Positions 1,624 through 36,278 of a stretch of 64,000 nt of DNA are shown here, piece by piece. Position numbers and translations under genes: made by a program. The first letter of the stretch is position 1, and the number at the start of each line of letters is the position of its first letter. Origin of the DNA: Gavia stellata (taxonomy: Eukaryota > Chordata > Aves > Gaviiformes > Gaviidae); NCBI RefSeq assembly GCF_030936135.1, contig NC_082617.1:3468001-3532000 (forward strand), given 5' to 3'. Below the pieces are notes generated by a model. It made no database searches. It saw only the letters and a program-made list of their open reading frames with translations, and was not told the DNA's origin.

Positions 1624-4600
1624 GGCTGTCCTGGGAGACGTGGACTGGTGGGACCCAAAGGAGATAAAGTGAGTATCCATGTAAACACGGGAAGGTATGG
1701 GATGGGGTGTAGGGTCCGGGGCAAATACTACAGATGGTTTGGGTTGGTTTGAGTGTTTTTCATCAAGAGGGCAGTGTGAGCTTCTGAAGCTGCAGTCTGG
1801 TGGCTGGAAGAGGAAAGAACTATTTTTACAGGGTATTTTAAGCCCAGGCTGAGGACTGAGCTGACTGTCTGGACAAACTGCTGTCTTTCCTCTGGGCCAC
1901 TTAATGGCTCTGCAGAGGTGGCCGAGCAGGGAGATGAAGCAGCTTTAGCTCAGGTCACCCGGAGGAGGGATGCTGGTGTGTCCCAAAGTCCAACCCCATG
2001 CTATATCCACCAACCCACCTCGGAGGGGCATCCGTCCTCCAGCACCGCGTTGGTCAGACCCACGGCTGCCTTTCCCACCCCAGGAACCCAGTGCATGGCA
2101 CAGCTCAGTCTCCTGCTGCACACAGCATTGCCTAGTGCACTGACGGATGCTTGGAGATGCTCTGGATTAAGGGTGGTGCCTCAGTTTCCCCATCCGTAAA
2201 ACAGCGAGAGTGCTTCTAACCACCTTTGCGCAGCAGTTTCCACCTTTCCCAAGCTGTAAAGGGGCAAACTCGTTGCCCCACGAGTCATGCCACTTCTGTG
2301 TACATTAGCTTCAATACCTGTGGCATTTAGATGGGTCTGGGCGCATGCACATGCACACGAAGCTCATTCCTTTTGCTTTCCCTGTTGTCAGGGTTATTTA
2401 GATCTTAAGAGCTGGTTTGAACCCAGGAATTATTAATGTGCCTAGACACAGACTCTGCTCAGAGGCTGACTTGAGTCAGAGTCTGGTGTCCAGCCTGTGT
2501 TGACTGTTAAACCCCTGACTGGTTTTAAGGAGCTGCCCTTGTCTTCCTAGGGGTACCCTGGAGCCATGGGGCGGACAGGTCCCCCGGGGGACCCGGGTCC
2601 TGTGGGCATCCCTGGTGTCCCCACCATCGTCCTCTGGAGGAACTCCAGGGAGGACTGGCAGATGTTCACAGTGAGTTATGGCCGTGGTGGGCGAGCGCTC
2701 GGGGAGCTCCACGTACACCTCCCCATCAGCTCCCATGCAGGCGCCTCTCCGCTCTGCTGCGATGAGAGCTGGGAGGAAGGGTTCGCAATGGTTTGAGATT
2801 CCTAATCTGTTGGGTGGGAGGACAGAGGTGGGGTAGGCAGACGGGGCAGAGGGAGGATGCCAAGGAAGGAGGTGCTCGCAAGACCCATCACAGGCACACG
2901 GTGCGAGACCAGACTAAATAGGGATAGGAGAGAGCAAGCTGGAAGCGTTGGCTGGAAGAAGCCTGCAGTGCCAGAGCGCATCTCCATGCCTGTGCCAAGG
3001 CAATCGCCTTCCTCCCGGGGTGTTTAGGGTAGACGTCTGCATAATCAATTCCTGTTGTCAGGGCATAGTTACAGCACTTCGCAGTGCTGCTGACGCTCTT
3101 TGCTCTGCACACTCAGTCAGAATTGCATTATTTTTTTCCTGCCTGTATTTGGAAAGGGACTTCAGGCTTTGTTATTCTGCAAGCAAAACCATCTATGCCT
3201 ATGGATGTTGCCGTAGACTGTGATTTCTTTGGTGTACCACCACCTTTGGTGCTTAAGTGTTGGGAATGCTGGAGGGAGCAGACGGTTTCGTCTGCATTTG
3301 GGAAGCCGAAGCTGGAGGGCTGCCGGGCCCCTGGCCGCAGGCTCCCGGGGGTTTTGCGTGCTGGCGCTTGGCCCGGTGCTTTTGGCAAAGTGCCGATCTC
3401 GAGGGGAAGGCAGTGTCTGGCAAGGATGACGTGGGGCAGCCGAAAGCCTTGCTGGGCTATTGTGTCTGTGGCCGTATGACCCTGGCAGTGCTGGCAGCAG
3501 CGTTTTGCTCGGCAGCAGGAAACGGGAGTGCAAAGCCATGGTCTGGTTTTTGCTAATCTTTGTTGAGATAGCTCAGGGGTGAAAAGCTGAGTGCTGGCTG
3601 CTGTGAGGATGGGGGGGGCTGTCTGCTTCTGCAGAACTTACTGGGGGGCTGGAGAAATGCTGTGGCTTGGGACAGTGCTGCTCTTGTGAGCTGAGTGCTT
3701 GTGATTTGGGGGCTGCAGGGGGGGCGTCCTGGCTGCTGGGGCTTGTTGTTGGCTCAGCCTTTGGAAACACAAGTCAGAGGAGCCAGCTCTCAGGCCGGGG
3801 GATGTAAGTCAGTATGATGGACTGGGAAGGCAAGGGACATCGGTGACTGTCCCCGAGCAGTTATGGCTGTTGGGTTGCTCAATAGCTTCTCCCACTCCTT
3901 CCCGGTGAAACAAGCCTTTGCTGTTCATGGGAATTGAGCAAAACCAGCTTAAGGCCACTGCAATTCTGCCCAAGCTCCTGTCCTGTGTTTTTGTTCACGA
4001 CACACTGACAGACATTGGGTTTGCCAAGAAGTTGTCTCAGTGTAACTCGAGGGGCAGGAACTGTTGCTGTCTTGTTCTGGCAGTGTTGACTTTGGTACTG
4101 GTGGTGTCCCAGAAGCCGGGGAAGGAGAACTGGAGCTCCCGCAGTTATTAGGCAGCTTAATCTGCAGCACTACAGTCTTTTGGTTTTATCTCTCCCAATA
4201 CCTTTAAAAGCAAGAGGTCAGGTTGGGAAATGAGGGCTGGTAACCTTAGAGCAAAAGAAAATAGTGCTCCATGCAAAAAGGAGGCAACCTTTAGAGATTT
4301 CCTACTACTGAAAGGTCAGCGGCTGGCGCAGCTCTGTGACTGCATGGCTTTGTGGTGGTGGGGTGGGGTGGGGAGGGCGGCCAAGACCGTGCTGCAGGGC
4401 ATGGCCTGCTCCCTGCAGAGCTGTCAGAAGGGTTTTCTCTGCCCTGCGCTCAGGTGGAGTTTTACAGGAGGACAGATCCATACGGCGATCACTCCCCATC
4501 CTCCATCCTCTCCGTTTCCTTACGATCCCCGTACCCGTCACGCTGCTCCCCGCTGACCAGAGCTGCAGCGAGCAAAGCGCCTATTTCCTGCTGAAATTGC

Positions 4601-6194
4601 AGAAGGCAATTAATTTCTCTCCCCTCTGCTTGGCATCTGGTGCTCCGAAATACGAGTTCACATCTCCTGTGGGATTTTTTTTTCCCCCTTTTTAAAAGGT
4701 TGGATTTTTTTTTTGAAGCCTAATGAAATAATATCCTGTCCCGAGTGAATCTGAGTTCACCGATTCCCAAGACAAGGCAAAAGCATTGGCCATGCTCCAA
4801 CCCCACCCACCCCCCCAAAGTTTTTGTGAGCAGCTTTTGAGGGAAATGAGAACTGTCTGGACAAGAGGACCATGGCCTGGCCCTGGCAGGCTGGCAAGGA
4901 CTGCACTGGTTCCCTCGTGGTAATCAGTTTGGGATCAACTTGAAAGGAACCGGGATTCCTGGTGCAGCGTTAGAGCTAGTTAAACGCATCCATCCATCAT
5001 CTGCCCCTGAGAGCCCCGCTCATTATTAGAAATATTTCCATATGTTGAAAGGTCTGTGTTTATTTTCGTTAATGAGTTCCTTGGCTTATTCCCTTCTCTC
5101 TCCTCTGGCATTGGAGGATGAATCTTCGGAGAGGGGGACAGGAGGGGGTTTCCTGGTGCCCCCAAGGCTGAAGCTGGGGAGCACGTGGGAGTCCTGCCCC
5201 TCCAGCTGCTTGGGATTGGGGTGATGAACAAGGGGGGATTTTCTTAGCCTTTGATGCAAGCCAGGAGTTGGAGGAGCTGCCTGGACCGTACGTCTGGGCT
5301 CACCATGGGAACAAGGAGGGAGGAGGAGGAGGAAAGGTGGGTTTTGCCTCCTGAGTGTCTGTGCTTTGTGCTGCTGGGAGGGCAGGAAGATGGCTGGTAG
5401 CTGGAGACAGACATCGTTTTGTTTCTTGGCCATCTCCCAAAACTTGAGGAAACCTGGCTTTGAAGTGTGTGGAGAGGAAGCTGCGCCGTGAGTTTTTAGG
5501 ACCTTTACGCTGGCTTTGAAATACAGTGGGATTAGCTGTAGCTACGATGGGAATAGCCCACCCGGTGGCTTTTGGATGTTTTTTTTTCCCCTTTTGTGGT
5601 CATCTGGTCATCTAAAAAATTGGAGGTGTGTGTGAAAGAAAGATTTGGCTGCTAGGAGCAGTGAGGAGAAAGCCTGCCATCCACAACTGCTGGAGGATCT
5701 CCTCATCTGGGGCTTTGGATGGGGCTGGTCGGGGTGAGGTTTCCCACCTGGGGCAAACTGCAGTGTCCAAACAGGTGGGTTTAGTCCAACCGGGGCTAAA
5801 TATGATGGTACCTGTGCTCACCAACATGTTTCTGACCTCTCCACACGCAAAACATTTCTGGTGTCCCAAGGCTGCTAGGACATCCATGGGGGAGCTGAAT
5901 TTCAGCAGATTTCAGAAGTGGGGTCTCTGCCTTCGTTTGCTGATGAGGACAGCAGTTCCTTATCTCCTGCACGTTGGCCTCAGATTAAGGCTTGCCCTGT
6001 GACTTGCATACACATAGTATATAAAAAAAATATTTGATTAGAGGACAGGTTCATTGCTGCGTCTTCCCAAGCAACAGAAAAAAGACTTTGAAGCCAGCAA
6101 AAGGGTATTTCGATTGTTTTTTTTTTAAATTTTGTTCCCCCCCTTCTCCTTTCAGCAATCATCATTTTACCAGCTTCTACATGCAGGCTGGCCG
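1624..6194 (+). CDS. Collagen exons: end of minor helix and non-collagenous hinge
   Basis: Three phase-0 exons. 1624-1668 (45 bp) encodes [15 protein letters not shown], with a cysteine in an X position. 2551-2670 (120 bp) encodes eight Gly-X-Y triplets beginning [10 protein letters not shown], then leaves collagen register and ends in the segment [18 protein letters not shown]. 6156-6194 (39 bp) encodes [13 protein letters not shown]. In alpha1(V)/alpha1(XI) chains a comparable break (hydrophobic TMLMLPFRF-like, then an ILQQARLALR-like segment) joins the minor and major helices. The placement and the final 13-residue exon fit that architecture, although the residues are strongly diverged. 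In related chains this hinge lets the N-propeptide project from the fibril; here that role is inferred. Confidence 0.85.
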
Positions 6195-9100
6195 GTGAGT
6201 ATCACTGTTAAGCAACTTTCTGTGGTTCGGGTTTTCCTCTCTCCAAGCACTTCGTCAGTGAGATTTGTTTTACCGACATTGCTCTTTTTAATCCAGAGAA
6301 AACCCGGAGCCCCCGGGCCCCCAGGACATCCGGGGAAAACGGGAGCACCTGTAAGTAAGAAAAGCCCCGGTGTCCCCTCCGCGGCTGGGTGCTGCTTGTC
6401 CCCGCTGCCGCCCCGGCTGGCCTGGGGCAGCTCGCAGAGTCCGTGTCCCCAGTCACTTGCACAATCCTGGGCTGCCCCGAAAAGTATCTGCTGCCCGGTG
6501 GCTTCTGGCATGCTGTAATTAAGGGCCTTGGGATTGGGTTTCAAAGAAGCCTAATGGTTTGCTTGTCTGCTTCCCACCAAAACCCGGGGCGTGGTTGTTA
6601 TCTAACTCTCTGGGTTTCGTTGGCAGACGCAGCCCCTGCCCCTCTGTCTCTGCCAGCTGAACAGTGCTGGCTTAACTTCCCCAGGGCATCGGGTTCCTGC
6701 CCCCGTGTTTGGATAGGGACCATGCGGATCTCTCCCAGAGACACAAAAACAAGCCAGAGAATGGCTTGCAGGACTCGTGTGGGGCCAGCCCCACGCTGGT
6801 GGGTCTGCAGCCCCATGCCCACGCAGCCCCCGGGATCGCTGGGTGATGCTTCCTCCCCTGGCTGGCCTCTGCAAAGAGGGCAGTGCCATGAGGCAAAAGA
6901 AACGAGGGCAAAACTCCCCATCCTGACCTCCCGTAGGGCACCAAAGCAACAGGGAACCAGATCTGTCGCTGCCTCCAAACCTGCCCTGGCCACAGACCCC
7001 CGCAAAGGGTGGCGGGTGTGCCGGGGGATGCGAATCCTCCCGCTCTGCCCTTCCCGAGGCTGCCTCTGTGCAGTGCTCCTTGTCCTCCCCACGACAGCCT
7101 CCGCAGGGCTCTGGCTGCTCTCAGCACGGGGCAGGATGAGGGGACACGCTTGACTCCATCCCTGTTTGTGCGCAGGGACCCTGCGGAGATCCGGGGAGGC
7201 CGGGCGAGAAAGGCCAGCGGGGGTACACGGTGAGTGGGGGTGCTGGCTGCGGGGGGGTGGGGGGCTTGGCTGCGCGGAGAGCCCAGTTTGGAGAGGTTGA
7301 GTGTGCCCTCGGGGCTGTCCTGGGGACCCTCGGAGACCCTGCCGCTCTCGGGTCAAACCCTGGAGCGCTGGGTGAGGGAGAACTGTAACAGTCGGGTTTG
7401 CTGCCGGTTTGGGACCCGTGCAAGGAAATGTGTGCCTGGTTTGAAGGGTCACGCGAGGCAATGCCCCGGTCCTCTCTCTGGGGACCTTGCTGTGGCTGGC
7501 AGGGGTGGCTCTCCACAGCAGGCTCGTTCCCCTGACCGAGTCCATGCTGCAGCTCCTCTTGCCCTGTGTTTGCAGCACCCCGCTCGGGCAGCTGCACGGG
7601 CTCAATGACTGCTCAGCACAGTCCCTTCAGGTGCTGGAGTCTGCTGTGTGTCACCCCATGTCCTCCCAGGCAGGTGGGCACAATTTGGTACAGTTGTTCC
7701 AAAAGCATTCTGTCCTTTTGTCACCTTCTGGAAACCACCCACCTCCTTCCCCGCGGCTCTGGCCGAAGGGGTGTGCGAGCTCTGCCTGTGCTCCATGACG
7801 GGAGCTGCTGTGCAGTGTGCCCTCGGGGGACCCAGCCACCTCCTCCAGACCGAGCGAGCACAGCTGCCTGTGGGGCTTGGATGCCCCATGGGTAAAAGGA
7901 AAGGAGAACAGATGTCCCCATCTCCCAGCATCGCTGGAGCTTTCCACCCACTTTCCCACCCGTGCTTGCTGGTACCCAGCCCTCATGGGAAGTGTTGGTG
8001 CATCCTGAATCTTGTCCCTCTCAACAGAGCTGATGCACAGGTGTCCCCCAGCACCCCCCTGCCTCTTGCTTATTTGTTCTGGTTGCTGCTGGGGTGCTCC
8101 AAAGGGACAGCAGCACCCACCCCTGTTCCTCGTCTCCCTGCTCACCCATCTGCTGGAGCCCTCCAGTGTTTCCTATCCTGCAGAGCATCTCCCCACTGAC
8201 CTTAACCACAGCACCGTGGTCCCCTTGGCTCCCTCTCAGCAATGACTGTCCGTTCCTCCTGCCATCTTCTTTGTCATCGTGTCTTCCTCTCCAAAAATGG
8301 GGTGGCTTTTCTTCTGGATTGAGGAGAGAAGCCAAGGACAGGCTAGGCTTACAAGGATCGGTGCTGAAGGAGGATTTGGACGGGCTGGCAAGCAGGACAC
8401 AGGCTGGTTCCTGGCAGCTGTGTTGAACCTTTAAGTCCCAAAAGCTCACGGCAAAAGTTAAAGTCAGTATCTGGGGCAAGAAACACAGCTTATGCCATCA
8501 GGCGCTGTGTGTCTGCTTTCTATCACACATCCTGCTGCCAGGTGCCCTGTCACCCCCAGCCCTGCTCCCGTGCAGCAGGGACGCACCCCGGGGATAGTGT
8601 TTTACCAGATGCCAACATCTGGAAGGCGTCACTGACTGCGTTAAGCCGGTTGAGTGTAAACACTGGAGTCTGTCTGCGGAGCTTAATCAAAAGGTGCCAA
8701 AGTTATTCTCCGTCTTCACATAAACAGGATCTGAAAGGGGAGGCAGCAGTTCGGGGGGGGATTAGCACAGAAATGGAAAGGAGCAAATTTTTTCCACCCA
8801 TCACAGCCCATCTGCAAGCCTGTGTCATGGCCACAGCCCTGGCCCTGGCCCCCTGCTCTCCTGCTCCTGCTTTGGCATCTGCCGAAGGCTTTGTGTGGCA
8901 GGTTTCCATCAGGGAAACTCAACTCAGCTTTAGGACTCAGCTTTTGACTGGTCTGGGATGATTTTTAAGGTTCACATTTCTACTAGACCATGGCCCAAGA
9001 GGTCTTTGCCCATTCAGGTTCCAGCAGGTCTCCACTCCCTGCTCTCACTTCCCCAGGGAGGCTGCTCAGATGACAGCAGGGGCGAGGAAGAGGAGGAGGG

Positions 9101-12100
9101 ATTTCACCCACCTGCATCAACCCCTGAGCACACGGTTGGGTTGGGTTTGCCCATGGTCTGTTTTGCATTTGGCCCATCTGCTGAGGCTCACCTGCCACAG
9201 AGCACAGCCAGAGGTGTGTCACAGCCCAGGTCTCTTCCTTGCAAAATTGTGAATAACAATAAATACTCCCCAAAGCTGGGGCTGGAAGTGGAATGGGGCA
9301 AAAATGCTGGCTTTTGGGCTGGGTGCCCCAAGCATACACGGCCACTACTGAGCATGGGGGATGTGCGTGGCTGGCTGCGTGATGCCGAAGCCCTTGGGGG
9401 AGGGAGATGGAAAAGCAAACCTCCCCAAAACAAGCTTTTTATATTTTCGCAACCAGATTCTTCACTTGAGAAGTAATGGCGGCAGCTGTGTCTTTCTGCC
9501 CTTCCTTCAAACTCTGACTTTACAAACTGAAACAAAGTCCAGTTTTTGGACTTGACCAAATGTTCAAAAATTTTTGAGAAATCTAAACAATTGAAGTGAT
9601 TTGAAGGGAAGTGTCTTCTCTTTGTTCCAGACTGCTCTTTATCCTGCCTTAATGCAGAATTACCAGTGAGCTAAGGGGTAAAAATAGCTGCCCCTAAGCT
9701 TTAGCTGGTGATGCCCAGTCCAGATGATCTGCTCAGGCTCTTGCATGTGGGAAAGCATCAGAAACAGCTTTGAGCGTAAGCCCCAGAGCCGAGAAGCAGA
9801 TGCAGAGGGCTTTCGCTTGATCTTCTCAACGCATTGCTTCTTCCCTGCCTTCCACTTTGTTTCTTGCTGCACAGCTGCTGGTTGTGGGTCTCCCACGGTT
9901 TCAGTCGGAGAGCCTGAGCAGATCCACATGCCCAATGCTTGCAGGACCTGGATGCACAAAGCCTCTCCCCCTGCCAGCCCTCCCCATCTCCTTGTGAGGT
10001 ACTTGGTGTTTAGCAGGCGTTGCTGCAAAAGCACGAGGCAGGCAGAGCTCAGCGTTCAATTTATTGGTTTCATAATGATGTGGATTTTTTCATTTTCCAT
10101 GCTTGGCTTTTTTCTCCCCAGGGTGAACCCGGGCTCCAGGGCTTGCCAGGACGTGTGGGTTACCCCGGCTCGGATGGTTTCCCTGGCCTGGATGGCAAAC
10201 CTGGGCCGTGGGGGCTGCCGGGAGAGCAGGTGAGCCGCGGGCAGGCAGGGCCATGGCATGGCCAAGGTTGGGGTGGGGAAGCTGCACCCCCAAGCCCCGA
10301 CCAGGAGACAAAGGGCTCCTCACGCTGCTGCTCTTTATATTCGCTTGCTTCCTTTAACTAAAATATTCTTCCTAAGCCTACAAACCCAGGCAGTCCTGGA
10401 TTAGTGCCTCGAGGTTCATGTTTCCCCAAAAAAAGGGCTGTAGAACATCACACGTGTACATTAAGGTGCAGCTGAGGTCACCTGAGCGCTGCAGAGCCTG
10501 CGTTGTGGTGGGCTGAGCACGAGTGCTGGGCTGCGCTTCTGCCTCTGAACCTCCTGGTTGCTTTTACAGGAGAGAATAACTGGGGAGGGGAAGAAAGAAA
10601 TGAGAGCAGTTATGGACTGCCTGGATAGCGTTCAAGCTATGAAGCCGGTCACTTGGCGCTGTGACAGTCCCTGCCCTTTTCCAGACCCCTGGTAGCAATC
10701 CCTGGGGAATACGAGCTATGTACCTGGGCTTGGAAGCTCAGGGGGGTTTTGGAGATTGGTGACAGGGACTGGACCACGCTGAGAGGTTTGGGGCTCTCAG
10801 CAGCCCCCCGGGAGTCTGCACCGTGGTGGCCGTGGGCAGGAGGCAGCAGCGCAGTGGGGAGGGGGGAGCGGGGCTGGAGCTGGATGTGGGTGGGAGGCAC
10901 TGGGCAGCCCCTCAGCACCCACTCTGTTCCTTCCTCCCTCTCCCCAGGGACTGCAGGGCTTCCAGGGTGACCGGGGGCTGGCTGGCGAGAAGGGAGAAGA
11001 GGTAAGCTGGCTCTCGCTTGCTCAGCCACGCAGTGCTGTGGGCACAGCTCGGTGCCAGCCCCAGTCCCGACATGTTGGAGTGGGAGACGGACCCGGAGTA
11101 ACGATGGAATCTCAATATGAGTACAGTCGTTCTCCCCTTTATTCAAGCTTACAGAGTATATATAGACAGATGCCAAGAACACGCGTCCGCAACAGTTGTA
11201 TAATTGGCTTACGGTCTCTGTTCACGTGCCGAGGTGGCGAGTGTGATTGGTACTCTTGTGCACGTACAGGAGCACTTCTCTTCGTGGATGTAGCTCCTTC
11301 TTCTTGTTTACCATTCCACTGTCTCTTATCACAACAGGCTTTCAAGGACAGTTAACGGTTTCCTCTGAGCCTTCCCTCTCATCAGAGACTGGGTTGCTCA
11401 TGGGAATCAGATCGTGTCCCTTGTTACTAAGCCATTCCTCCACACCGGCACGTACACTTAATGCAGTAAGAGCTTTTCATCACTGGTTTCACCGGCAGCG
11501 CCTGCTACCCACGTTCCCCCCCCCAGCCTGCGGGTACATGTGTGCCAGCCTGATGTTGCCTTACGGTGTGGGACGCCCTATTGCCGCCCTCCAGCCGTGC
11601 GGGATCCGGCTGGCAGCCGCCCTCGCCGCTGTGTCCGCTCAGTCTCCGGCCGTGCGAGTGCCCTCTGCTCTGAGCTGCCCAACCCAGGGGCGGCGGGGGC
11701 TCCTAGCCCACGTCACTGCCGTTCTTCTCCAGGGATTTGTCAGCCAGGATATAAAACATAAATGTCTGTGAAACAGTGAATGCTAGTGGTTTGTCACCCT
11801 TTTTTTTTTTTCTTTTCCCCTTACCCAGTCTTTTTAAGCCAAGTGTTAGCTAAAATTTTTAGAGCTGCCCAGGAGATTTTGGGCTCCTCTGAGGTCTGAT
11901 CATACTGGGGTGTTTGAAACCCAATTTATTCTTTTTGAAACAGCAGTCCCCCAGGGTTTATCATATATCTTTTCTGGCCCGTACTTTGTACCCTCTTGCC
12001 TGTGAGCATCATTCCAGCATCCAGATGGAGAATCTCTTGCCCTTGTGCTCAATCTCTCTGCGCTTGAGCACTCAGCAGCTGCGGACACGTGAAGCTCAAG

Positions 12101-27100: not shown

Positions 27101-30100
27101 TACGGGGGAAATCGGAGAAAAAGGCCATAAAGGAGAGAAGGGCCAAGAGGGTTTGCTGGCAAGTACAGAGAGGGGCTGCCTCAGCCCACCGGGCTCCCAG
27201 CATCCCCACAGGCTGGCGGTTGGGTGCTGGGTGCCAAGGAGGGGGGCTCACCCTCGTCGGGAAACCTTGGGCTCCAGGAGCTGCAGAAAATACTAGGAAT
27301 TGGCAAATCTCTATAATTAGGGAGTTCGTGTCTCATGGGCACAACTCCAAAATTGGGTCTTGTTGGCATAATAGGGCAGTTTGGACTTACTGGGTGGTTG
27401 GGGTTAATGCTGCCTCCAGCCAAACTCCAGCCTCCTGCCCCCCAGCCGGGCTGGGACCCTGCTGAGCATGTCTCCCTCTGTGTCCCAGGGCCAGGTCGGT
27501 GTCACTGGAGCTGCGGGACCTTCTGGAGCCAGAGGGCGGTTTGTAAGTCAGATCATGTCCCTCCTCCCTTTTTGCCTGATCATATACTTGGTGGGGGGAT
27601 GTGTGTGTGACTGGAAGCACTGGGCAGGGTTGAATCAATGGGGCTCCTTTGCTTGTGCCCTGAACAGGGTGGGACGGGTCTCCAAGGTCCTCCTGGGCTT
27701 GACGGTCCCGAGGGAGTGAAGGTACGGTGGGGTGAGGGCTCCAACCCTTCATCTCTGGGTGAAAAGCCCTTTTCTGCTCTGGTCCCAAGCTCTGCTTTCT
27801 GCCTCTGGCTGATGGGGGACGTGGTGGGGCTGGCTGTGGTGGAGGAGCTGGGTCAGACCTGGGCAGGCTGGTGACCTGGGGGACCTGCCATGGGGCCCTC
27901 CCTGCCTTGTTGCCTGAGATCCAAAGTCAACAAGGCAAGGAAGGAGTTTTCCAGGGACAGAGCTGTTTCCCCTTCTTCCCCAGGGAGATCCAGGGCCACG
28001 AGGCATGGACGGACCCGCTGGTGCTGCAGGATTAGAGGTACTGATGCCTGGGATCTTGTAGAGCCGGGAGCTGCCCGGCTTCCCCAGTGCTTCACCATTT
28101 CCAATACAAACCAAAGCCAAAGGGTTTATTGCCCCTTAACTGCCCAGGCCAGGAGGCTCAGGAGTGAGGAGGGGTTTTAAATGCCTCGTGGCTTGGCACT
28201 GACTCCCAGGAGGTACTCACATGCCTCCACCCCAAAAATCAGACCATTTCAGTCTGGGACCAGGGATGCCTTGTGGAAGACCTGTTCCTGCTATCAAATC
28301 ATGTTCACTCCCACGAGGTGCCCAGGTGCTGCCTGGGCATGTGCCTTGGCCACCTGAACGTGGTACGAGGGAGAGGATGCTTAGAATACCTGCCGAGGGC
28401 CTGAGTGCGAAGCACATGGTGGTGACGGGTTTATTCTCAATGCCCAACATGACCGCAGGGACTCGCTGGAGATGACGGAGCCAAGGGAGATGGCGGCAAG
28501 CCCGGTCCAGTGGTGAGTACCAGCCCTGCCCCTGCAGAACTTCCCTGGGAGCGAGGTTTGGTGGCATCTTGTGATGGAGCAGCAGAGCCTGGAGCTGGGG
28601 CTGTGTGTCACCCGCGGGGTGGCCTCAAAGCGAGCTCTGCCAGCCCAAGTGCCAGGCTGTGACTCCCGGGTCCTGCCCTGCAATGGCTTTGTAACTGAGT
28701 CATCGTTTCCTTGGTTTCCCTCGAGCCAAAGCTCCATAAAGGCGTTTTAATACAGCTATTAAAAACTGTGCAAAAGTGCTGCGGTTGTTGTGCAATTAAC
28801 GCTCGGCTGTCAGAGTCTGCCTGAGGCAGATCCAGGGCATTTGGCTTCCCCCTCCTCTGCTTTCACAGATGCAGGTGTCCGTAAGGTCAGAGGGCTCCAA
28901 GAACCGCCCCGTGCTCAGGACCACTTGCGCTGCCCTGAGATGCATTTTATGGTCGTGGTCGTGACACGCACAGAGCCACAGATGTGCTATTGATGCCCTG
29001 TGCACGGCTGCAGGATAAAACCCATTTGCATCCCAGTTTTCCCATGTTGCAGTGCCGCTCTGCCCAGGCAAGACACGTCCTTTACTTGGGCGGTTGCCTT
29101 TGCTGGGAGAGGTCAGGATGCAGAATAAACTCTGGGAGGATTTGCAAAGCAGTCAGCGAGAGCCGTCGCTCTGTGTAGATGAAGCCTCTCGAGGGGCGGC
29201 TGCTCGGACCCTGCTCCCGATGGGGTGGGCTGGGGTGTAACCGATGCCCCTGTCTGTGTGCACTGCAGGGCGCAGCGGGTGCCCGGGGGCCAGCGGGTGC
29301 CCCCGGGCTCCGGGGCTACACGGGGCATGAAGGAGCCAGAGGAGCAGTGGGTGCCAAGGGAGAGCCGGGCCGGCAGGTAACTCCTCTCTCTGCCGTGGGG
29401 ACGGGCAGGGGGACATCCCCGCAGGGTGGCCCTCCCCGGCACAGCTCCGGCACCAGAGGACCCTGGGGGGAACAACCCCAGTCTAGACCCCAGCGCAAGG
29501 CAGGCGGCTTTGGGCTCACCCTCCTGCCTTCCCCCAAATAACCCGGAGCTGATGCTGATGCCGATGCCAGCCTTGTGTTTTGTCCCCAAATGAACTCAGG
29601 GTCCTCTCGGGCCACCGGGTGAAGCTGGAGCCACGGGGCTGAGCGGCAGCGAGGTGAGTGGGCTCTTCTGCTGCCCCATTTCTTTGCCTCCAGCTTTTCT
29701 CACAGCCCAGGTCTGTGCTACTCTGACAGCCTGCCTGGGATTTGGGTGAATAACCCTGGAGCTTATTTTTCAGAGCTGGGTTGATTTTTTGTTTTCCTCC
29801 CTAGGGCCTGGCGGGTGCGAAAGGAGAGCTGGGCAAGCCGGGAAAACCGGGGCAAACGGTGAGGAGTGGGATGGAGCCATACTGGTTCTCCCTGGCACAG
29901 GCAGTGGGGTGCTGGGATCTCCCAGCTGCGGTAAGGTCCCACATGGGCAGCATCTCCTGCTCCTGAAACACCCCCATGGCCCCGCTCTGCCCAGCCTGCT
30001 CCAGAGAGGGGCAAAAATCAGAAATGGAGACTTCAGCTTAGAGCATCCTCCTGTGCACGCCGTGGCAAAAGCGGGGAGGGAGGCTGGGCGGGGACATCCC

Positions 30101-33100
30101 TGGCACCACATCCTTATGGAGGGGTTTCCTTCTCCTTTGGGATTTTAGGGGTCTCCGGGACAAGCCGGTCCTAAAGGGCGGAAAGGTCGCAAAGGAGAAA
30201 AGGTACCTCCGAAATCCTCCTCTGTGGATGGCACCCGAGGGGGACCGGCCACCGGCTGTGGGGTGGCTGAGCCTGAGCTGGTCAAGCCTCTTGTGGTCCA
30301 TGGAGAGAAACCAGGGGGAATCGCCCTGGGGGTCTCCCCGCTGTAAAGGCAACCGTGCATCAGTGCCTGGCAAGCACAGAGCCCTTAGACGCTCTTGGGT
30401 TGCCTTGGCTGGTTTTTGGGTGAGGGGCTGGCAGGTCTCCCCAGCTCAGCCCCCTCCAGCCCCACAGGGCTGCCTCCATCCTGGGTCAGGTGCCCTTGAG
30501 GGGGGACAGGGGACCTCCCCTTCCCTGGCCAGCTCTGCACCATGCCCTTGGTGTCCATCTCCCCAGTCCCACAGCACCTGGTGAGCTCTGTCCCTGTCTC
30601 CACGCAGGCAGCAGCCCCTTTTCCCCAGTCCCAGTCTGGGATGTTGCTGGGCTACTGGTGACCTATGTCTCCCATCTCTTCTTCCCCCAGGGCAATGCAG
30701 GGAGTGAAGGGGAAGAAGGGGTCCCCGGAGAAACTGGCAGACGGGTAAATGGCACCGTTGTCCCAATGGGGGGTGGCGGGAAGCATGGGGCTGATGCTTG
30801 GAGCCCACGGAGGCCTTGCAGAGGGGCCCCGGTTCGCTGGGGGCTCAGCATCCCCGGGCGGGCAGCGAGGGGGATGTGGGGTGGCCGGCTTAGCGCCTTT
30901 TACAGGCTTGGATTGCTCGTGAGTCTTTAATCTGTTGTGCCCAGGGCAAGCGAGGCAAGGCGGGCCACCGGCCCCCGAGAGGCCCCCGGGGACCCAAGGT
31001 AGGTCGGCTTTGCCCCCCTGGGGCGAGGGCTGCGTTGGCACCCTGGCAGTTGGGGGGGGCTCCCACCTGCCCGAGCCCCTGGCTTAGAAAAGGATAAGCC
31101 ACTACAGGGGCATCACATAGCTGGAGGGCTCTGTGTCCCCTGTCCCAACCAGCCCAAGGAGGGGGTCTCCCGCACCCCCAGCCCCCATGGGTTTCTCTCC
31201 CTGCAAGAGGCACCGGGGCATCGCTCCTGCCTTGCTCTCATGCTGCACCGCTGCGCCCACCAGCCAGGGCCTCTCGCTTTTGCATTTCAGGGCTCCCCAG
31301 GCGACGAGGGGCTGCAAGGACCCCAGGGCCCCCAAGGACCCCACGTGAGTACGAGCTTGGAGGTTTTGGGGTGCTGGCTGCGGGTACCACTGTGCAGCCC
31401 AGCTCTGCGGGACCCATTTAAAGACCCATTTAAAACAAGTGAAGTTGCTCGGTGTTTCACCCATCTCATCTTGCCTTCTCCTCCCAAATTAGCATCCCCG
31501 CAGTGTGTGCACAGTCAGGCAAATCCCATAATTTCCAATATGTTGTTCTAGGGGCCAAAATACTTCCTTTCCAGTTAAGCATCTGATGCCTGGCAGTGCT
31601 GAGCGCTTGTAGAGGACTGTGCCCACGTTCCCAGAGAGCTGCCATGGCCGGAGGGACCGGCTGCACTGCAGCAGCCAGCATTGGCCAAAAAAAACCTACT
31701 CAAATATTATTTTTAATTACTGGAAATTGTTTTTTCTCTATTTAAAATAAAAACCCTGGCTTTGAAAACTTCACAAAAGAAAGCCAGGATGTTTTGCGAC
31801 CAGCCAAGGGACGCAAACTGCGTTTTTAACAGGGTTTGCTGAGGGATCCTTCCGAAAGCAAAAATCAAAGATACGATGAGAAAATGCCTCAAAGTTTCTA
31901 AAACTGCCTGAAGTTCTCGGAATCCTGGCAGCAACCTAGGTTGTGGGGAGGTCCCTCCTTGCCAGGGAGCGGGCGGGAGGAGCCCAGCCACAGGGTGATG
32001 CGGTGCCGCATCGTTTCTCTCTTAGGGCATCCCAGGGCTGAAGGGCATGAAAGGAGACCCTGGACCGAAAGGACACAAGGTGGGTGGCATGCACCGGGCA
32101 CAGTGGGGACTCTGGGCACAGGCTAGCATTTAATTTGCTGGATGCCATCACTTGTTCCCCTCTTCTTGAACCCTGATAGCTGCAGCATCCTTCGTTAGGG
32201 GTTGACTACTACATCCCCAGGTGCCAGGAGATGGGACCTTTAGACTTTCTCCAAAACCAGGTCCTTTTCCTCTCCATCCTCCCGGAGTCTCAAGCAGCAG
32301 CGTGTACAGTCTTTTAATCCCCTGCTCTCAGCACTGCTGTTGACGCAGCATGGGCACGTACCTCCTCTGTGTCATTGCTGATGGATCCAACCTTGGCCCG
32401 AGGAGCCGAGTGTATCCTCACGGTCCCATCCGTCAGCCGCAAGGCTGTAAATAAGACTGACAGGCAGTCCCTGGCGGAGGGTAGTTGCTTGCATCCTTCA
32501 GGAAGATGAAACCCCGGTAATAAATACAGCTTTAAATTTATTGCGAGCTAAATGAGCAATGGCAGAAGCTAAAGTCCAGGGCATTCAGCGAGGCCAGAGC
32601 AGGCGGAGGGGAGGCTGCGGGCAGCCGCTGTGCTGGGGTTTCTTCCCCTGCTTCACCGGATTTCAGCACACAAGAAATTGTCTTTATTTTCTCAAAGTGT
32701 TTCCTGGGAACTTCCGAGGTTTTCCTGAATGTTATTTTAGTCTGGAATGATAAAATACTTTGTTTGGCCTTTGCAGCTGAGCAGGGGAGGCAGACGCTCC
32801 ATCACGCCTCCTCCTTCCCCAGCAATGACGCTGCAGTAATTCTACCAAATCGAAAGGGTGTTTTTCAGAAATTTTGCAGCCAGCCATAACTGGGAATTTC
32901 CCATTTCCAGCTGCTTGCTGGAGGCCAGGAGATGTTTGGCCTTAGGAAATGTCCCCAAGCAGGTATCTGCTGCCAGGGTCAGGCAGCGAGCAAAACCTCT
33001 GTTGCCTACCTGATTAAATACCATTGATGGAGTAACTACAGCAGGGTTCCTGACACCCACCTTCTGGGGCAGAGCTGGCATGGTTGGGTGTCCCAGGGGA

Positions 33101-36100
33101 GTATCTATTCTCCTCTGTGCCACCAAAGCTCTCCCTGACTGTCTCCTAGGGCGAGAAGGGCAGCATGGGTGACCTGGGCCAGCAAGGGGACGATGGCTTC
33201 AAGGTGCGTGAAGGGTTTTGCTCTCTTCCTCCATCCCCTTGGTCCCTTGTCACTCTGTGTGATGCCCTGCCACGTCTCCTAGGGCAAACCGGGACCCCAT
33301 GGCATCCCCGGGAGGCCGGGACCCAAGGGACAGCAGGTAAGGGCAGGGTGGAGGGAAATAGGAGGAACAGAGATGAGTATTTGGGGTGAATTCCTCATCT
33401 TTCTGTACAAAATCCACCTGGGGAAGGGGCTGGGTTGTAGAAGGATGTAGGGCTGGGGGATTCCCCGTGCAGCACCCTGACCTCCTCCGGTGTCTTTGCA
33501 GGGTGACACTGGCCCCCCCGGCCCACGGGGACACCCCGGCTTCCCCGGGACGCCGGTGAGTCCTTCGCCCTCCTGGCAGGTTTGGGGTTTGCTCCTGGTC
33601 CCGCAGGAGTTATGCTGGGATGGGGCTTCGATCCCGCCTGCTTCCCTCTTAGCCGGGTCTTGTCCTTCTCTTCCAGGGCTTGTCCGGACCCAAAGTAAGT
33701 AGAGGGGAGCGCCTGGAGCTGGGCTGACTGCAGGGCATCCTCCCCTCTCTCCCTGGGGTGCAGGGTGGCCCCATGGGGCACCCCAGGGTGCCGCTCAGCA
33801 TGGCAGCATCTCGCCACCTTACTTTTCTTCCCTGCTTCGGCAGGGGCTGAAAGGCTTCCCAGGGCTGCCGGGACCCAGGGGCACGCCGGGACTGCCGGTA
33901 AGCAGAGCTGCTAACGTCCCTCGTGCCAAAATTTGGGTCCCTTGCTCCCCCAAATTTGGCAGCAAGGTCCCGCCATGCCATGCCATGGGGATAGCGGGCT
34001 GCTGGCGGCGGAGCCATGAGTGTGGTGGGGGGCTCGTGGGCAGCAGCCAGCATTGTCATTGTCACCCAGGGTCTCGCCGGCCCCCCTGGTCCCAGCGGAC
34101 CCCCGCTCGCGCTGTCCAGGGAGGAGCTGCGGGTGAGTGCGTTGGAGAGGCGATGCTGCATGGGGGAGAGGGGGGGAAGGGGCTGACAGCGATGCTGTCC
34201 CATGTCCCACTGCTCCTGAGGTCCTCTGTGCACAAGGACCAAGGTCCTTGCACAAAGAGCAAGCAGATACTTTTAATCCCTCTCCCAACACGCCTGTCCT
34301 TGTCCCCTGCATGTCCCATCCCCTCCCTGAGCACATGGTGATGGTCCTGGCCAAAATAAGAGGGGATGCTAATGCCAGCTTGGTTATATCCCCCACTTTT
34401 TCTTTCAGCACCTAATTTATTCCTCCAACCACCTGAATTACACCGCGGTCTGGGCTCTGCTGCACACCCTGAGCCAGGAGCTGCAAGCCCTCGTTGAGCA
34501 TCCCAACGGCACCAAAACCAAACCGGCAGCCACCTGCAAGGAGCTGCTGCTGGCTCACCCCAGCCTGCCTGACGGTACTGGGGTGCACATGGTGTCCCCC
34601 CACGTTGGACCCGGATCCGGTCAGCCCTCCCCGCGCCGGGACGGCGCGGGAAGGGCTGACCGGATCCGGGTCCAACGTGGGGGGGACAGGCAGCTCTTTG
34701 CAATTAAGAAGGGATGAGGATTTGGGGAATGAGCTCAGCTGGGTTTCATGGGCATCCCTGGAGCAACAGGATGGCAGCCAGGCTGCATCCCAGGAGGATG
34801 GAGGTTGCAGCCAGGGATGTGCCACAAGCTGAGATAGAATGGCATCGTGTGACATCCTCCCCATGCCAAAAACCGGGTGCCAGGAGCTCCCCTCTGCCTC
34901 CTTCCAGGGCAATACTACATTGACCCCAACCAGGGCAGTCCCCAGGATGCACTGGTGGCCTTCTGCAACTTCACGGCGGGGGGCGAGACCTGCATAGCCC
35001 CCGTCCACAACCAGGTATGGGGTGGCTTTCATGGAGGACCTCCAGCCCCGTGTTACTGCTCAGGGTGGGCGAGGATGGGGGGCTGGTGTGGCTGGTGAGG
35101 GACAGTGTGGCCGGTCCCTTGCCGTGGTGACTGCTGCCATCACAGGGAGCTGTTGGAGCAGTTTAGGGTGAGGATCCTGGTCGCAGTGTGTGAGCAGGCT
35201 GCAGGGACAAGTCACACGCATGAGCTGGTATAGCTGGATCCTTGTCCTGGTGGTGCCACCATCCCCCACTGGGACAGCGTGACATGGTCCCCCCCCTCTC
35301 CTTGCAGGTCCCCATCAAGGCTTGGCTGAGCACCTACGCCTCCGAGGACACCTTCGAGTGGTTCAGTGCCCTGCCCGGGGGCTTCTTGGTGAGTGCCCAG
35401 CTAGGACAGCTGAGGGGACACAAAGCTCCTCATGGGGTCAGGAGTCTCCTAGTGCCTGTCCCGCTGCAGTGGGGCGATGCCTGGGCACAGGGTCCCGCTG
35501 GCTCTGCACAGTGGGACACGACACCGCTACCCGGTTTTCTCTCTCCTTGTCCCTGCAGCTGGAGTACGTGGGGGCCAGCCCGGTGCAGCTCCGCTTCCTC
35601 CGCCTGCACAGCCGCCTGGCCACCCAGAAGGTCTCCTACTCCTGCAGACCGGCCCCGGAGCAGGGCCAGCCCCAGCCGGAGAAGGAAATCCGCTTCCTGG
35701 CCGACTCCCGGGAGCAGAGCTATGCAGCCAGCCTACAAGGCTGCGTGGTAAGCTTGGCTGTGGCTGGACCCTTTTCCCTGCCTGGAAGAGCCCCCCGACA
35801 TTTGCAGAGCCCCTCGGCATGTGTTTGCAGCCCCAGGGTTTGGGATAGACCGAAGGTGTCGCACAGTGGGATGGGGATGGAGAGCATCCTCTCCCCGGGC
35901 CCAAGGAGCTGCCCCGGTCTTGGGGAGCGGGCTGGGATGTGGCAGGGGACAGGGTGCGCTCCGGGGGATACTGGGGAGGCCACCTCGCTGGAGAAGCTGT
36001 GTAGGGCTGGGGGCCTGGCTCCCGTGGGGTTTTGGGGTGAATTAAGGAGCAACTGGAGCAGCAAAGGGGACAGTGGGTGCTTCAAGAGGGTTTCGGTGCT

Positions 36101-36278
36101 GCTCAGCTGCCCCCGGTGCTCGTTTCAGCTGGACAACGAGTCCTCCATCACCGACACCATCTTCCAGTTCACCACGGAGGAGCTCTCCCTGCTGCCCCTG
36201 CGGGACCTGGCCGTCTTTCACAATGGTGACGCCTCGCACCAGTTTGGTTTCACAGTCGGACCGGTTTGCTTCAGCTGA
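1624..36278 (+). CDS. Fibrillar procollagen alpha chain, type V/XI-like (partial, 5' end outside window)
   Basis: This is the gene-level entry; exon lists are in the sub-entries. Sixty-one exons encode about 1324 residues: a 15-residue minor-helix piece, a non-collagenous hinge, a 1014-residue Gly-X-Y helix, and a 239-residue C-terminal extension with a COLF domain. Almost all helix exons are 45, 54 or 108 bp, phase 0, starting with a Gly codon. The 1014-residue length and the lysines at helix positions 84 and 924 match alpha1(V)/alpha1(XI) register. The hinge just before the helix and the C-propeptide motif [10 protein letters not shown] also point to the B clade. COL24A1/COL27A1 are less likely because their helices are shorter and interrupted. 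The product should be secreted and assembled into collagen trimers. The frame is intact throughout, so it is not an obvious pseudogene. Exact orthology is not resolved: COL5A1, COL5A3, COL11A1, COL11A2 or an unnamed paralogue. Confidence 0.93.
2671..6155. other. Collagen intron, 3.5 kb
   Basis: This is the longest intron of the gene in the window. It is unique-looking sequence with short homopolymers (T runs near 4673-4712 and at 5577-5592, and T-rich sequence at 6116-6133 before the acceptor). No Gly-X-Y coding segment flanked by splice sites was found on either strand, and no recognisable repeat family. Confidence 0.5.
6297..17667 (+). CDS. Collagen exons: major helix residues 1-306
   Basis: Exons: 6297-6350, 7176-7229, 10122-10229, 10948-11001, 12456-12509, 12640-12684, 12952-13005, 13761-13805, 14200-14253, 14340-14384, 14746-14799, 15204-15248, 15503-15556, 16372-16416, 17052-17105, 17560-17667. 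Sizes are 45, 54 or 108 bp, all phase 0. The first exon begins RKP, a non-Gly triplet, and the uninterrupted helix starts at the following GAP, numbered 1. Lys84 falls in GEKGEE (exon 10948); the KGHR cross-link motif of alpha1(V) at this place has lost its His-Arg. Cysteines occur at helix positions 18 (GPC), 164 (GCR) and 254 (GCR), unusual for a fibrillar helix. The donor of 14340-14384 (gtacat) is weaker than its neighbours; acceptors are pyrimidine-rich. Confidence 0.9.
7230..10121. other. Collagen intron, 2.9 kb
   Basis: No exon-like Gly-X-Y segment is visible between the exons at 7176-7229 and 10122-10229, and the helix register across them is continuous. No mobile element was recognised. 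Open frames in this stretch are GC-driven and lack family signatures. Confidence 0.5.
11073..11336 (-). mobile_element. Solo LTR-like element, endogenous retrovirus
   Basis: Read on the minus strand, this 264-bp unit begins TGTTGTGATAAG and ends CTCCAACA, giving 5-bp terminal inverted repeats (TGTTG/CAACA) typical of retroviral LTRs. Inside are a TATA-like run TATATATA (plus coordinates 11157-11164) and, 13 bp downstream, a polyadenylation signal AATAAA (11138-11143). That is the compact U3-R-U5 order of avian ERV LTRs. No obvious target-site duplication flanks it (cgaca on the left, ggctt on the right). No purine tract, primer-binding site or internal coding region was recognised, so it is best read as a solo or partial LTR. 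It lies antisense within the intron 11002-12455. Family assignment is not possible by eye. Confidence 0.72.
11337..12455. other. Remainder of collagen intron after the LTR
   Basis: The sequence is GC-rich between 11500 and 11750, with a C9-10 run at 11517-11526. A decoy splice acceptor near 11733 precedes a non-collagenous frame (GFVSQ). A T-rich tract at 11801-11818 follows. No recognisable exon, and no continuation of the retroviral element that I can support. Confidence 0.4.
17668..19372. other. Collagen intron, 1.7 kb
   Basis: No exon is found between the 108-bp exon 17560-17667 and exon 19373-19426. Register is continuous across the gap. No repeat family was recognised. Confidence 0.45.
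19373..27158 (+). CDS. Collagen exons: major helix residues 307-690
   Basis: Exons: 19373-19426, 19760-19813, 20020-20064, 20694-20747, 20997-21041, 21769-21822, 22539-22592, 22797-22850, 23100-23153, 23500-23553, 23734-23778, 24086-24130, 24802-24909, 25180-25233, 25540-25593, 25814-25867, 26166-26273, 26718-26771, 27051-27158. Three triplets lack their glycine. Exon 19373 reads GLN-SSE-GPK (Ser at 319). Exon 23734 begins ALP rather than GLP (Ala at 481). Exon 27051 reads GLG-ATT-GEI (Ala at 670). A cysteine occurs at 606 (GTC, exon 26166). Exon 27051 is exactly 108 bp only if the donor is GCAAGT, a GC-AG intron. Exon 20694 ends at a weak donor (gttccc). Each substitution keeps exon length and frame, so these are point changes and not indels. 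Confidence 0.9.
24361..24640. other. AT-rich block within collagen intron
   Basis: This block is clearly more AT-rich than the GC-rich surroundings, with several A and T homopolymers of 9-11 bases. It sits between exons 24086-24130 and 24802-24909. No coding potential or repeat family was recognised; it could be a decayed insertion or non-coding sequence. Confidence 0.3.
27489..34132 (+). CDS. Collagen exons: major helix residues 691-1014 and start of C-telopeptide
   Basis: Exons: 27489-27542, 27668-27721, 27984-28037, 28459-28512, 29269-29376, 29600-29653, 29805-29858, 30149-30202, 30691-30744, 30945-30998, 31291-31344, 32026-32079, 33150-33203, 33283-33336, 33502-33555, 33677-33694, 33844-33897, 34070-34132. 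Exon 33677-33694 is an 18-bp microexon coding GLSGPK. Exon 30945 reads GHR-PPR-GPR, a Pro in place of Gly at helix position 880. Exon 30149 carries a basic cluster, [12 protein letters not shown], which could bind heparin. Lys924 lies in GHK (exon 32026), the position of a cross-linking lysine in V/XI chains. The helix ends GPSGPP in exon 34070, followed by nine non-collagenous residues LALSREELR. Confidence 0.9.
32080..33149. other. Collagen intron, 1.07 kb
   Basis: No exon or repeat family is seen here. A short AT-rich patch at 32518-32545 contains AATAAA, which has no apparent role within the gene. Confidence 0.4.
34409..36278 (+). CDS. Collagen exons: C-propeptide (COLF/NC1 domain) and stop
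   Basis: Exons: 34409-34574, 34908-35014, 35308-35388, 35559-35747, 36129-36278 (stop TGA). The first holds a heptad-like segment ([16 protein letters not shown]) and [15 protein letters not shown]. The second holds the calcium-site motif [14 protein letters not shown] and [10 protein letters not shown]. The last ends [11 protein letters not shown]. Using the eight-cysteine numbering of fibrillar C-propeptides, C1 and C4 to C8 are present, but C2 is Ala (LLAHP where LxxCHP is usual) and C3 is Ser (NQGS for NQGC). C2-C3 is the interchain bond, while C1-C4, C5-C8 and C6-C7 are intrachain, so only the interchain pair is lost. The region before QLRFLRL is about eight residues shorter than in COL1A1 or COL3A1, where chain selectivity resides. 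Potential N-glycosylation sites: NYT, NGT, NFT, NES. No RxxR furin site is seen between helix and domain. Confidence 0.93.
34593..34688. repeat. Near-perfect 45-bp inverted repeat (hairpin)
   Basis: Left arm 34593-34637, 5-base loop GGGAC at 34638-34642, right arm 34643-34688. The arms are complementary along their length except for one mismatch (TCC against TTC) and one extra base in a C/G run. The arms contain GTTGGACCCGGATCCGGTCA and its complement. It lies in the 333-bp intron between the first two C-propeptide exons, starting 19 bases after the donor. No flanking target-site duplication is evident. As RNA it would make a very stable 96-nt stem-loop next to a splice donor. It may be a foldback element, a palindromic duplication, or (less likely) an assembly fold-back artefact. 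Confidence 0.93.

What the first reader, a model, noticed from the sequence alone, without database searches (positions are those of the whole stretch)
1624..36278. An unassigned type V/XI-like fibrillar collagen gene beside SLC31A2 and NIBAN2
The exons give a complete 1014-residue helix, a V/XI-type hinge and a COLF domain, yet C-propeptide and hinge residues are far more diverged than expected for a bird orthologue of COL5A1, COL11A1 or COL11A2, which are highly conserved. All 61 exons are open and spliced normally, so the divergence is not decay. It may be a paralogue lost or unrecognised in mammals, or an extremely derived COL5A3/COL11A2.
Basis: partly seen in the sequence, partly recalled or inferred. 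Interest (0 to 1): 0.88.

Follow-up and report, generated by a model that had tools for sequence, protein, structure and literature searches.

The report
Overlooked fibrillar collagen, shark to bird
A bird chromosome segment carries most of a working-looking gene for a large fibre-forming collagen that belongs to an unnamed family seen in a shark, fishes, a lizard and birds but not found in mammals, so jawed vertebrates may have had one more fibre collagen than is usually listed.

Summary
Confirmed in outline and extended. Window 1624-36278 (+) holds the last 61 exons of a fibrillar procollagen gene: end of a minor helix, hinge, 1014-residue main helix, COLFI C-propeptide. All exons are open; introns are GT-AG except one GC-AG. 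The helix is not perfect: 4 of 338 triplets lack glycine. The C-propeptide groups at 100/100 with 12 database proteins (shark, bichir, eight teleosts, lizard, turaco) that carry contradictory names, outside COL5A1, COL5A3, COL11A1, fish COL11A2, clade A and clade C. One loach has both this chain and a COL5A3, so they are separate genes. Whether the family is a derived V/XI branch or a fourth clade is unresolved; AU tests reject neither. Glycine substitutions recur in the family (18 of 1821 triplets, against 32 of 17213 in other fetched chains, most of which look like gene-model errors). Bird, lizard and four teleosts lack both inter-chain cysteines (C2, C3) that a published code ties to disulfide-linked trimers. 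Reading-frame conservation against turaco argues against decay. Most likely a minor, kinked fibril chain that trimerises without C2/C3 disulfides or within heterotrimers (inferred). Expression, partners, synteny and the 5' end are untested.

The parts
1624..2670 (+). exons 1-2 of the window: end of the minor (N-propeptide) triple helix, GCPGRRG... to GIPGVP, and first part of the hinge ([16 protein letters not shown])
   Evidence: spliced model; LWRN hinge motif shared with Tauraco, Thalassophryne, Coilia, Bagarius
6156..6194 (+). exon 3: second part of the hinge, [13 protein letters not shown]
   Evidence: identical in Tauraco (13 of 13)
6306..34105 (+). main triple helix in exons 4-56 (6297-34132): 1014 residues, 338 triplets; inner exons of 54, 45, 108 and one of 18 bases, all phase 0
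19409..19417 (+). glycine-less triplet 107 (SSE) in exon 20
   Evidence: DNA
23734..23742 (+). glycine-less triplet 161 (ALP) at the start of exon 30
27096..27104 (+). glycine-less triplet 224 (ATT) in exon 38, whose donor site is GC
30972..30980 (+). glycine-less triplet 294 (PPR) in exon 48; the turaco model, read back to this frame, cannot encode glycine there either
34106..34574 (+). short C-telopeptide and start of the C-propeptide (end of exon 56, 34106-34132, and exon 57, 34409-34574); C1 kept, C2 position is Ala
34908..36278 (+). exons 58-61: rest of the COLFI domain, stop codon at 36276-36278; C3 position is Ser (DPNQGS); the other six cysteines kept
   Evidence: Pfam COLFI 1.1e-44; cysteine table and alignment
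39154..43574 (+). neighbour: Ctr-family copper transporter, read as SLC31A2 (exons 39154-39159, 41744-41810, 42623-42791, 43406-43574)
   Evidence: DNA; Pfam Ctr 2.4e-26 on the spliced protein; the gene name is recalled
45492..63000 (-). neighbour: minus-strand gene read as NIBAN2 from its C-terminal exon (KHNLYRDSMVMHNSDPNLHLL); upstream extent approximate and not modelled
   Evidence: ORFs; name recalled, three Pfam queries gave no hit

Best explanation
The gene encodes a fibrillar procollagen chain of a separate, unnamed orthologous family that most likely existed in the jawed-vertebrate ancestor and survives in at least a shark, ray-finned fishes, a lizard and birds. Shown here: exon structure, domain order, the family as its own clade, recurring glycine substitutions, and absence of C2 and C3 in the window, lizard and several fishes. 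Inferred: it is secreted, its COLFI domain nucleates trimers, and its N-terminal globe sits on the fibril surface as in types V/XI (general knowledge), so that it acts as a minor chain that limits or tailors heterotypic fibrils. Lacking both C2 and C3, it should not form disulfide-linked homotrimers; it most likely joins other chains non-covalently at the C-propeptide stage, or trimerises through calcium and side-chain contacts only. The scattered glycine gaps would give local kinks.
For: Own clade at 100/100, stem 1.23; shark outermost (99/96 for the rest), then lizard + birds (100/97) beside bichir + teleosts (94/83) (first version). N-terminal domain tree, unrooted, five family rows, separates it from clade B at 100/100. 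Helix register: the 414-residue tail of Thalassophryne matches the window at 29% of X/Y positions at shift 0 and 14% at the next best shift. Own hinge motif. Coexistence with COL5A3 in Triplophysa and with COL11A1 in Polypterus. Glycine audit: 18 of 1821 triplets against 0 of 1533 in 13 controls that I chose (Fisher p 3.2e-5) and 32 of 17213 in all 139 other fetched proteins. C2/C3 absence read through the cysteine code of PMC6181919 (abstract and passages). Constraint: in-frame turaco stretches 358 of 394 identical, exons that its model reads in the +1 frame 279 of 370.
Against: AU tests do not reject a sister relation to single named chains: COL5A3 p 0.243, COL11A1 0.198, COL5A1 0.106, COL11A2 0.061. 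The stem is long and treekit warned that long branches of clade A and the family meet. Among teleosts the order does not follow the species tree (Thalassophryne and Pogonophryne split off before a group that joins Lampris, Centroberyx and Pampus with Coilia, Bagarius and Triplophysa), which may mean duplicates or noise. Most relatives are poor gene models. No expression data, no synteny in other species, no DNA of a second bird. Heterotrimer partners are unknown. Helix tails of Triplophysa, Scyliorhinus and Polypterus did not peak at shift 0, and whole-helix alignments did not separate fish and shark members (27-31%) from clade B chains (24-33%).
Confidence: 0.72

Rival explanations
1. It is an extremely derived orthologue of COL5A3 (or COL11A2), moved to a new place in sauropsids.
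For: Mammalian COL5A3 (P0037, end printed) and the window share the ending GPVCFS and a similar FLPL/LLPL stretch before it. A family + COL5A3 clade costs 4.36 log units, AU p 0.243. Among the 120 of 253 hits listed no reptile or bird row bore the name COL5A3.
Against: COL5A3 rows of mammals and fishes form one clade at 98/97 without the family. Triplophysa has both genes (P0147, P0060). A bichir and a shark carry the family form, so it is not a sauropsid novelty. Hinge and N-terminal domain differ.
Confidence: 0.08
2. A decaying gene in birds: four lost glycines show relaxed selection on the way to a pseudogene.
For: Four of 338 triplets lack glycine. The turaco protein model reads 20 exons out of frame, which could be real frameshifts.
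Against: 61 exons open with normal splice sites in the window; glycine kept at 334 of 338; glycine gaps also occur in 9 of the 12 relatives, including one (APP) in the same context in Coilia and Bagarius, though model errors may add to these; in-frame turaco stretches are 91% identical while out-of-frame readings are 75%.
Confidence: 0.12
3. A derived member of clade C (COL24A1/COL27A1 type), suggested by glycine imperfections and by one relative named COL27A1B.
For: Clade C chains have helix imperfections and a TSPN module (PMC2852846, passages). A family + C clade was tested only in the discarded, where it was not rejected (p 0.347).
Against: Main helix 1014, not 997; a minor helix is present; the COLFI segment around FEWF...GGFLLEY is kept, whereas the recalled human clade C rows lack it. 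The two recalled clade C rows, used as outgroup, stand apart at 100/100.
Confidence: 0.04

Closest known systems
Type V/XI chains (clade B: COL5A1, COL5A3, COL11A1, COL11A2)
   Same: 1014-residue helix, minor helix, laminin-G/TSPN-like N-terminal domain in some relatives, [10 protein letters not shown] in the C-propeptide
   Different: 34-37% C-propeptide identity, other hinge, short C-telopeptide, glycine substitutions, both C2 and C3 missing in the window
Clade A chains (COL1A1, COL3A1 as solved structures)
   Same: helix length; the GGFLLEY / GFQFEY segment and VPxKxW region of the C-propeptide resemble clade A
   Different: no VWC domain found by Pfam in four relatives; C2 and C3 missing
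Clade C chains (COL24A1, COL27A1)
   Same: tolerated helix imperfections, TSPN-type N-terminus (PMC2852846, passages)
   Different: 1014 not 997 residues, minor helix present, C-propeptide longer
Lamprey colB4/colB5 (PMC8887668, passages)
   Same: [quoted passage not shown] they settled on col11a1 alpha and beta
   Different: sequences not compared here; no claim of orthology

Membership tests
Fibrillar collagens | COLFI C-propeptide | tested here: met
   Pfam COLFI 1.1e-44, profile 5-233 of 233
Fibrillar collagens | main helix of about 1000 residues | tested here: met
   1014 residues
Fibrillar collagens | uninterrupted Gly-X-Y, as in types I-III, V, XI (not required of clade C) | tested here: not met
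   334 of 338 triplets have glycine; no break in register
Clade B (V/XI) | TSPN-type N-terminal domain | tested here: inconclusive
   outside the window; of 4 relatives Pfam laminin-G was found in P0004 (5.5e-6) and just below the curated cut-off in P0001 (1.6e-4), not in P0006 and P0008; weak match of P0006 to the collagen IX N-domain, E 0.002
Clade B (V/XI) | minor helix before the hinge | tested here: met
   exons 1-2
Clade B (V/XI) | groups with COL5A1/5A3/11A1/11A2 in a tree | tested here: inconclusive
   B without the family 85/83; family + B AU p 0.43; family + A 66/28
Clade B (V/XI) | exon-size pattern of the helix that separates A from B | not tested
   no genomic reference genes available here; the criterion is from PMC2852846, passages
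COL5A3 orthologue | lies inside the COL5A3 clade | tested here: not met
   COL5A3 rows 98/97 without it; but family + COL5A3 (AU p 0.243) and family + mammalian COL5A3 alone (0.233) are not rejected
Clade A | VWC module in the N-propeptide | tested here: not met
   no VWC in 4 relatives, of which some lack the N-terminus; the window does not reach that far
Clade C | 997-residue helix, no minor helix | tested here: not met
   1014 residues with minor helix; definition from PMC2852846, passages
Homotrimer-competent chain (cysteine code) | both C2 and C3 in the C-propeptide | tested here: not met
   Ala and Ser at C2 and C3; code from PMC6181919, abstract and passages

The most novel reading that the evidence does not exclude
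The family is a fourth clade of vertebrate fibrillar collagens, split off about when clades A and B did, carried by the jawed-vertebrate ancestor and lost in mammals. It lost its inter-chain cysteines stepwise (shark both; bichir and three teleosts C2 only; four other teleosts, lizard and the window bird neither) and tolerates a kinked helix, so it is a natural exception to the cysteine code: a fibrillar chain that trimerises with no C-propeptide inter-chain disulfide at all.
Probability: 0.3. Interest if true: 0.87.

Novelty: new variant of a known kind. Interest (0 to 1): 0.74.

Why it matters
The passages seen of the 2010 review and of the lamprey study list eleven (or twelve) fibrillar chains in three clades, none of them this one. 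An extra chain kept from shark to bird and absent from the human list would change reconstructions of skeletal and connective-tissue evolution, and may bear on matrix traits that mammals lack. It also offers a direct test of the cysteine code of collagen assembly, because its bird form lacks both cysteines. Database entries for it carry five contradictory collagen names or none, which misleads collagen annotation and collagen-peptide identification in fish, reptiles and birds.

Tried and rejected
Own-genome search for other COLFI genes (the same request) did not complete, so I cannot say which named chains this bird has. Whole-helix alignment was uninformative because gappy alignments slip register in Gly-X-Y repeats; replaced by end-anchored register scans. 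The first AU tests used a wrong stretch of the chimeric protein P0149 and default end cuts for P0147 and P0148; they are discarded except where said, and redone (family + C was not repeated). The row named COL11A2 of Chrysolophus (P0105) fell inside COL5A1 and was relabelled. Cysteine column 7 is shifted by one residue for the family: the cysteine is there (QGC, RDC, PPC). tRNA and Rfam scans found nothing. Rejected: glycine gaps as splice-model errors only, because the four window gaps lie in exons with normal AG acceptors and otherwise regular triplets. None of the 18 family gaps begins with Val, the mark of intron read-through, against 23 of 32 in the other proteins (counted by eye from the lists).

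Literature: ten searches over an open-access library; two returned nothing, and no title or abstract start in the other listings describes this family. Passages were also seen of a catshark cartilage transcriptome (PMC13188829), the whale shark genome (PMC8455134) and a snakehead collagen study (PMC11687805); none of the passages mentions an extra fibrillar chain. Subscription papers are not covered; one that may matter (Haq 2019, PMC6375822) is not held.

Full report
What is in the window. A scan for Gly-X-Y exons with splice signals, followed by manual completion of the non-helical exons, gives 61 exons from 1624 to 36278 on the + strand. They splice to 3975 bases: 1324 residues and a stop. 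All acceptors are AG; the donors are GT except GC after 27158. The order is: end of a minor helix, a hinge ([29 protein letters not shown]), a main helix of exactly 1014 residues, a short C-telopeptide and a COLFI C-propeptide (Pfam 1.1e-44). The signal peptide and N-terminal globe lie upstream of the window. Four of 338 triplets lack glycine: SSE, ALP, ATT, PPR.

Relatives. A search with the C-propeptide (33 proteins among 1739 candidates) put nine proteins first: Phrynosoma 68%, Tauraco 67% (with missing parts), and Lampris, Thalassophryne, Coilia, Bagarius, Polypterus, Scyliorhinus and Centroberyx at 37-49%. The other 24, at 34-37%, are V/XI-type chains by name or by tree, nearly all named COL11A1 or COL5A1. 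A second search with the Bagarius chain (28 proteins among 801 candidates) listed nine family members, three of them new: Triplophysa, Pampus and Pogonophryne. The 12 relatives carry the names alpha-1(II), alpha-2(V), alpha-1(XXVII) B, alpha-1(XI) and CO1A2, or none. None is a mammal; the word-based search can miss distant or badly modelled members. A third search, with recalled human COL5A3 (253 proteins, 120 listed), listed no family member and supplied COL5A1, COL5A3, COL11A1 and COL11A2 references, including bird and crocodile COL5A1.

Tree. With 39 C-propeptide rows the 13 family rows are one clade at 100/100 with a stem of 1.23. COL5A3 (98/97), COL5A1 (100/97), COL11A1 (99/95), clade A (99/99) and clade C (100/100, both rows recalled, used as outgroup) are each separate; of COL11A2 only the two fish rows group (96/97), the recalled human row falls apart from them. 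Inside the family the shark is outermost (99/96 for the rest), then lizard + birds (100/97) beside bichir + teleosts (94/83), which fits the species tree, so the gene is at least as old as jawed vertebrates unless the shark row is misplaced. Within teleosts the order does not fit: Thalassophryne and Pogonophryne split off before a group that joins Lampris, Centroberyx and Pampus with Coilia, Bagarius and Triplophysa. That may mean duplicated teleost copies or noise. Sister relations to named chains are not rejected (AU p: COL5A3 0.243, COL11A1 0.198, COL5A1 0.106, COL11A2 0.061), and family + clade A (66/28) against family + clade B (AU 0.43) is open. Triplophysa has a family member and a COL5A3, Polypterus a family member and a COL11A1, so the family is a separate gene. 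The N-terminal domain tree (17 rows, no true outgroup, one family row only 34% filled) also splits the family from clade B at 100/100. Pfam finds laminin-G in two of four relatives, one just below cut-off, and no VWC.

Helix and hinge. The hinge LWRN motif occurs in Tauraco, Thalassophryne, Coilia, Bagarius and the window and in no other fetched protein. Anchored at the helix end, Thalassophryne (414 residues) matches best in register (0.29 against 0.14 for the next shift); Bagarius (0.16 against 0.14), Pogonophryne (0.40 against 0.27) and Lampris (0.50 against 0.35, 36 positions) also peak at shift 0, but Triplophysa, Scyliorhinus and Polypterus do not; the one clade B control, a COL11A1, peaks at shift 5 with 0.28.

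Glycine substitutions. Counting single glycine-less triplets flanked by four regular ones on both sides: family 18 of 1821 (13 proteins, window 4 of 303); 13 clade B controls that I chose, 0 of 1533 (Fisher p 3.2e-5); all 139 other fetched fibrillar proteins, isoforms included, 32 of 17213, of which I count 23 starting with Val (as a read-through donor would), 7 one shared triplet (ADK) mostly in COL11A1a and 2 a duplicate. Ten of the 18 family substitutions are to alanine (my count). Coilia and Bagarius share one in the same context; Tauraco, Polypterus and Centroberyx showed none in the 39 to 75 triplets testable. Gene-model errors may inflate the relatives' count, but the window's four are read from DNA.

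Selection. Tauraco's model covers twelve whole and three partial window exons in frame, 358 of 394 residues identical; 20 other exons it reads in the +1 frame, 279 of 370 identical. Lower identity in the wrong frame is what purifying selection on the true frame gives. The exons compared differ, chance matches were dropped by eye, and real turaco frameshifts cannot be excluded. Turning the +1 peptide of exon 48 back shows that turaco cannot encode glycine at the PPR triplet either.

Assembly. In the window, C-propeptide cysteines C1 and C4-C8 are kept. C2 and C3 are both missing in the window, Phrynosoma, Lampris, Pampus, Coilia and Triplophysa; C2 alone is present in Thalassophryne, Bagarius, Polypterus and Pogonophryne; the shark has both; Tauraco lacks C3 with no data at C2, Centroberyx lacks C2 with no data at C3. 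According to DiChiara et al. 2018 (PMC6181919, abstract and passages), human chains that homotrimerise have both C2 and C3, and those that cannot always lack one or the other. The review PMC2852846 (passages) says that either or both can be absent, both in some invertebrate chains. The simplest reading is a chain that joins heterotrimers or trimerises without C-propeptide inter-chain disulfides. The segment DPNQG is kept; that it belongs to the calcium site is recalled.

Known or new. The lamprey study (PMC8887668, passages) gives jawed vertebrates eleven or twelve fibrillar genes in clades A, B and C, and the passages seen of the 2010 review use the same three clades; neither mentions this family. 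No title or abstract start in ten literature searches describes it. I therefore call it a new variant of a known kind and leave open whether it is a fourth clade.

Limits. Own-genome searches did not complete. There is no second-species DNA, synteny or expression. Seven human tree rows are recalled. Neighbour names are recalled except the Ctr domain.

Noticed in passing
34596-34684: Near-perfect palindrome in the intron after exon 57: arms of 43 bases, 98% complementary, 3 bases apart; a strong hairpin, origin unknown.
   Followed up: partly
45630-46029: Tandem array of 60-base units (6.5 copies at 45637-46025) inside the C-terminal coding exon of the minus-strand gene read as NIBAN2, giving a repeated 20-residue motif.
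   Followed up: no
46773-47142: Array of 40-base units, 9.4 copies, 87% match, next to the same exon.
   Followed up: no
55829-56080: Array of 42-base units, 5.9 copies, 89% match.
   Followed up: no
719-1180: Minus-strand open frame that looks like the 3' end of a CR1-type retroelement reverse transcriptase, common in birds (recalled, not tested); a hint to the host class besides gene content.
   Followed up: no
family rows of the tree: Teleost members fall into two groups that cut across the species tree (Thalassophryne + Pogonophryne against the other six), as two copies left from the teleost genome duplication might.
   Followed up: no
P0105 (Chrysolophus pictus): A bird protein named collagen XI alpha 2 falls inside COL5A1 in the trees, so the name is wrong.
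   Followed up: yes
P0030, P0064, P0065, P0071, P0111, P0140, P0144: A shared glycine-less triplet GSK-ADK-GEQ recurs in these teleost proteins, most of them named COL11A1a.
   Followed up: no
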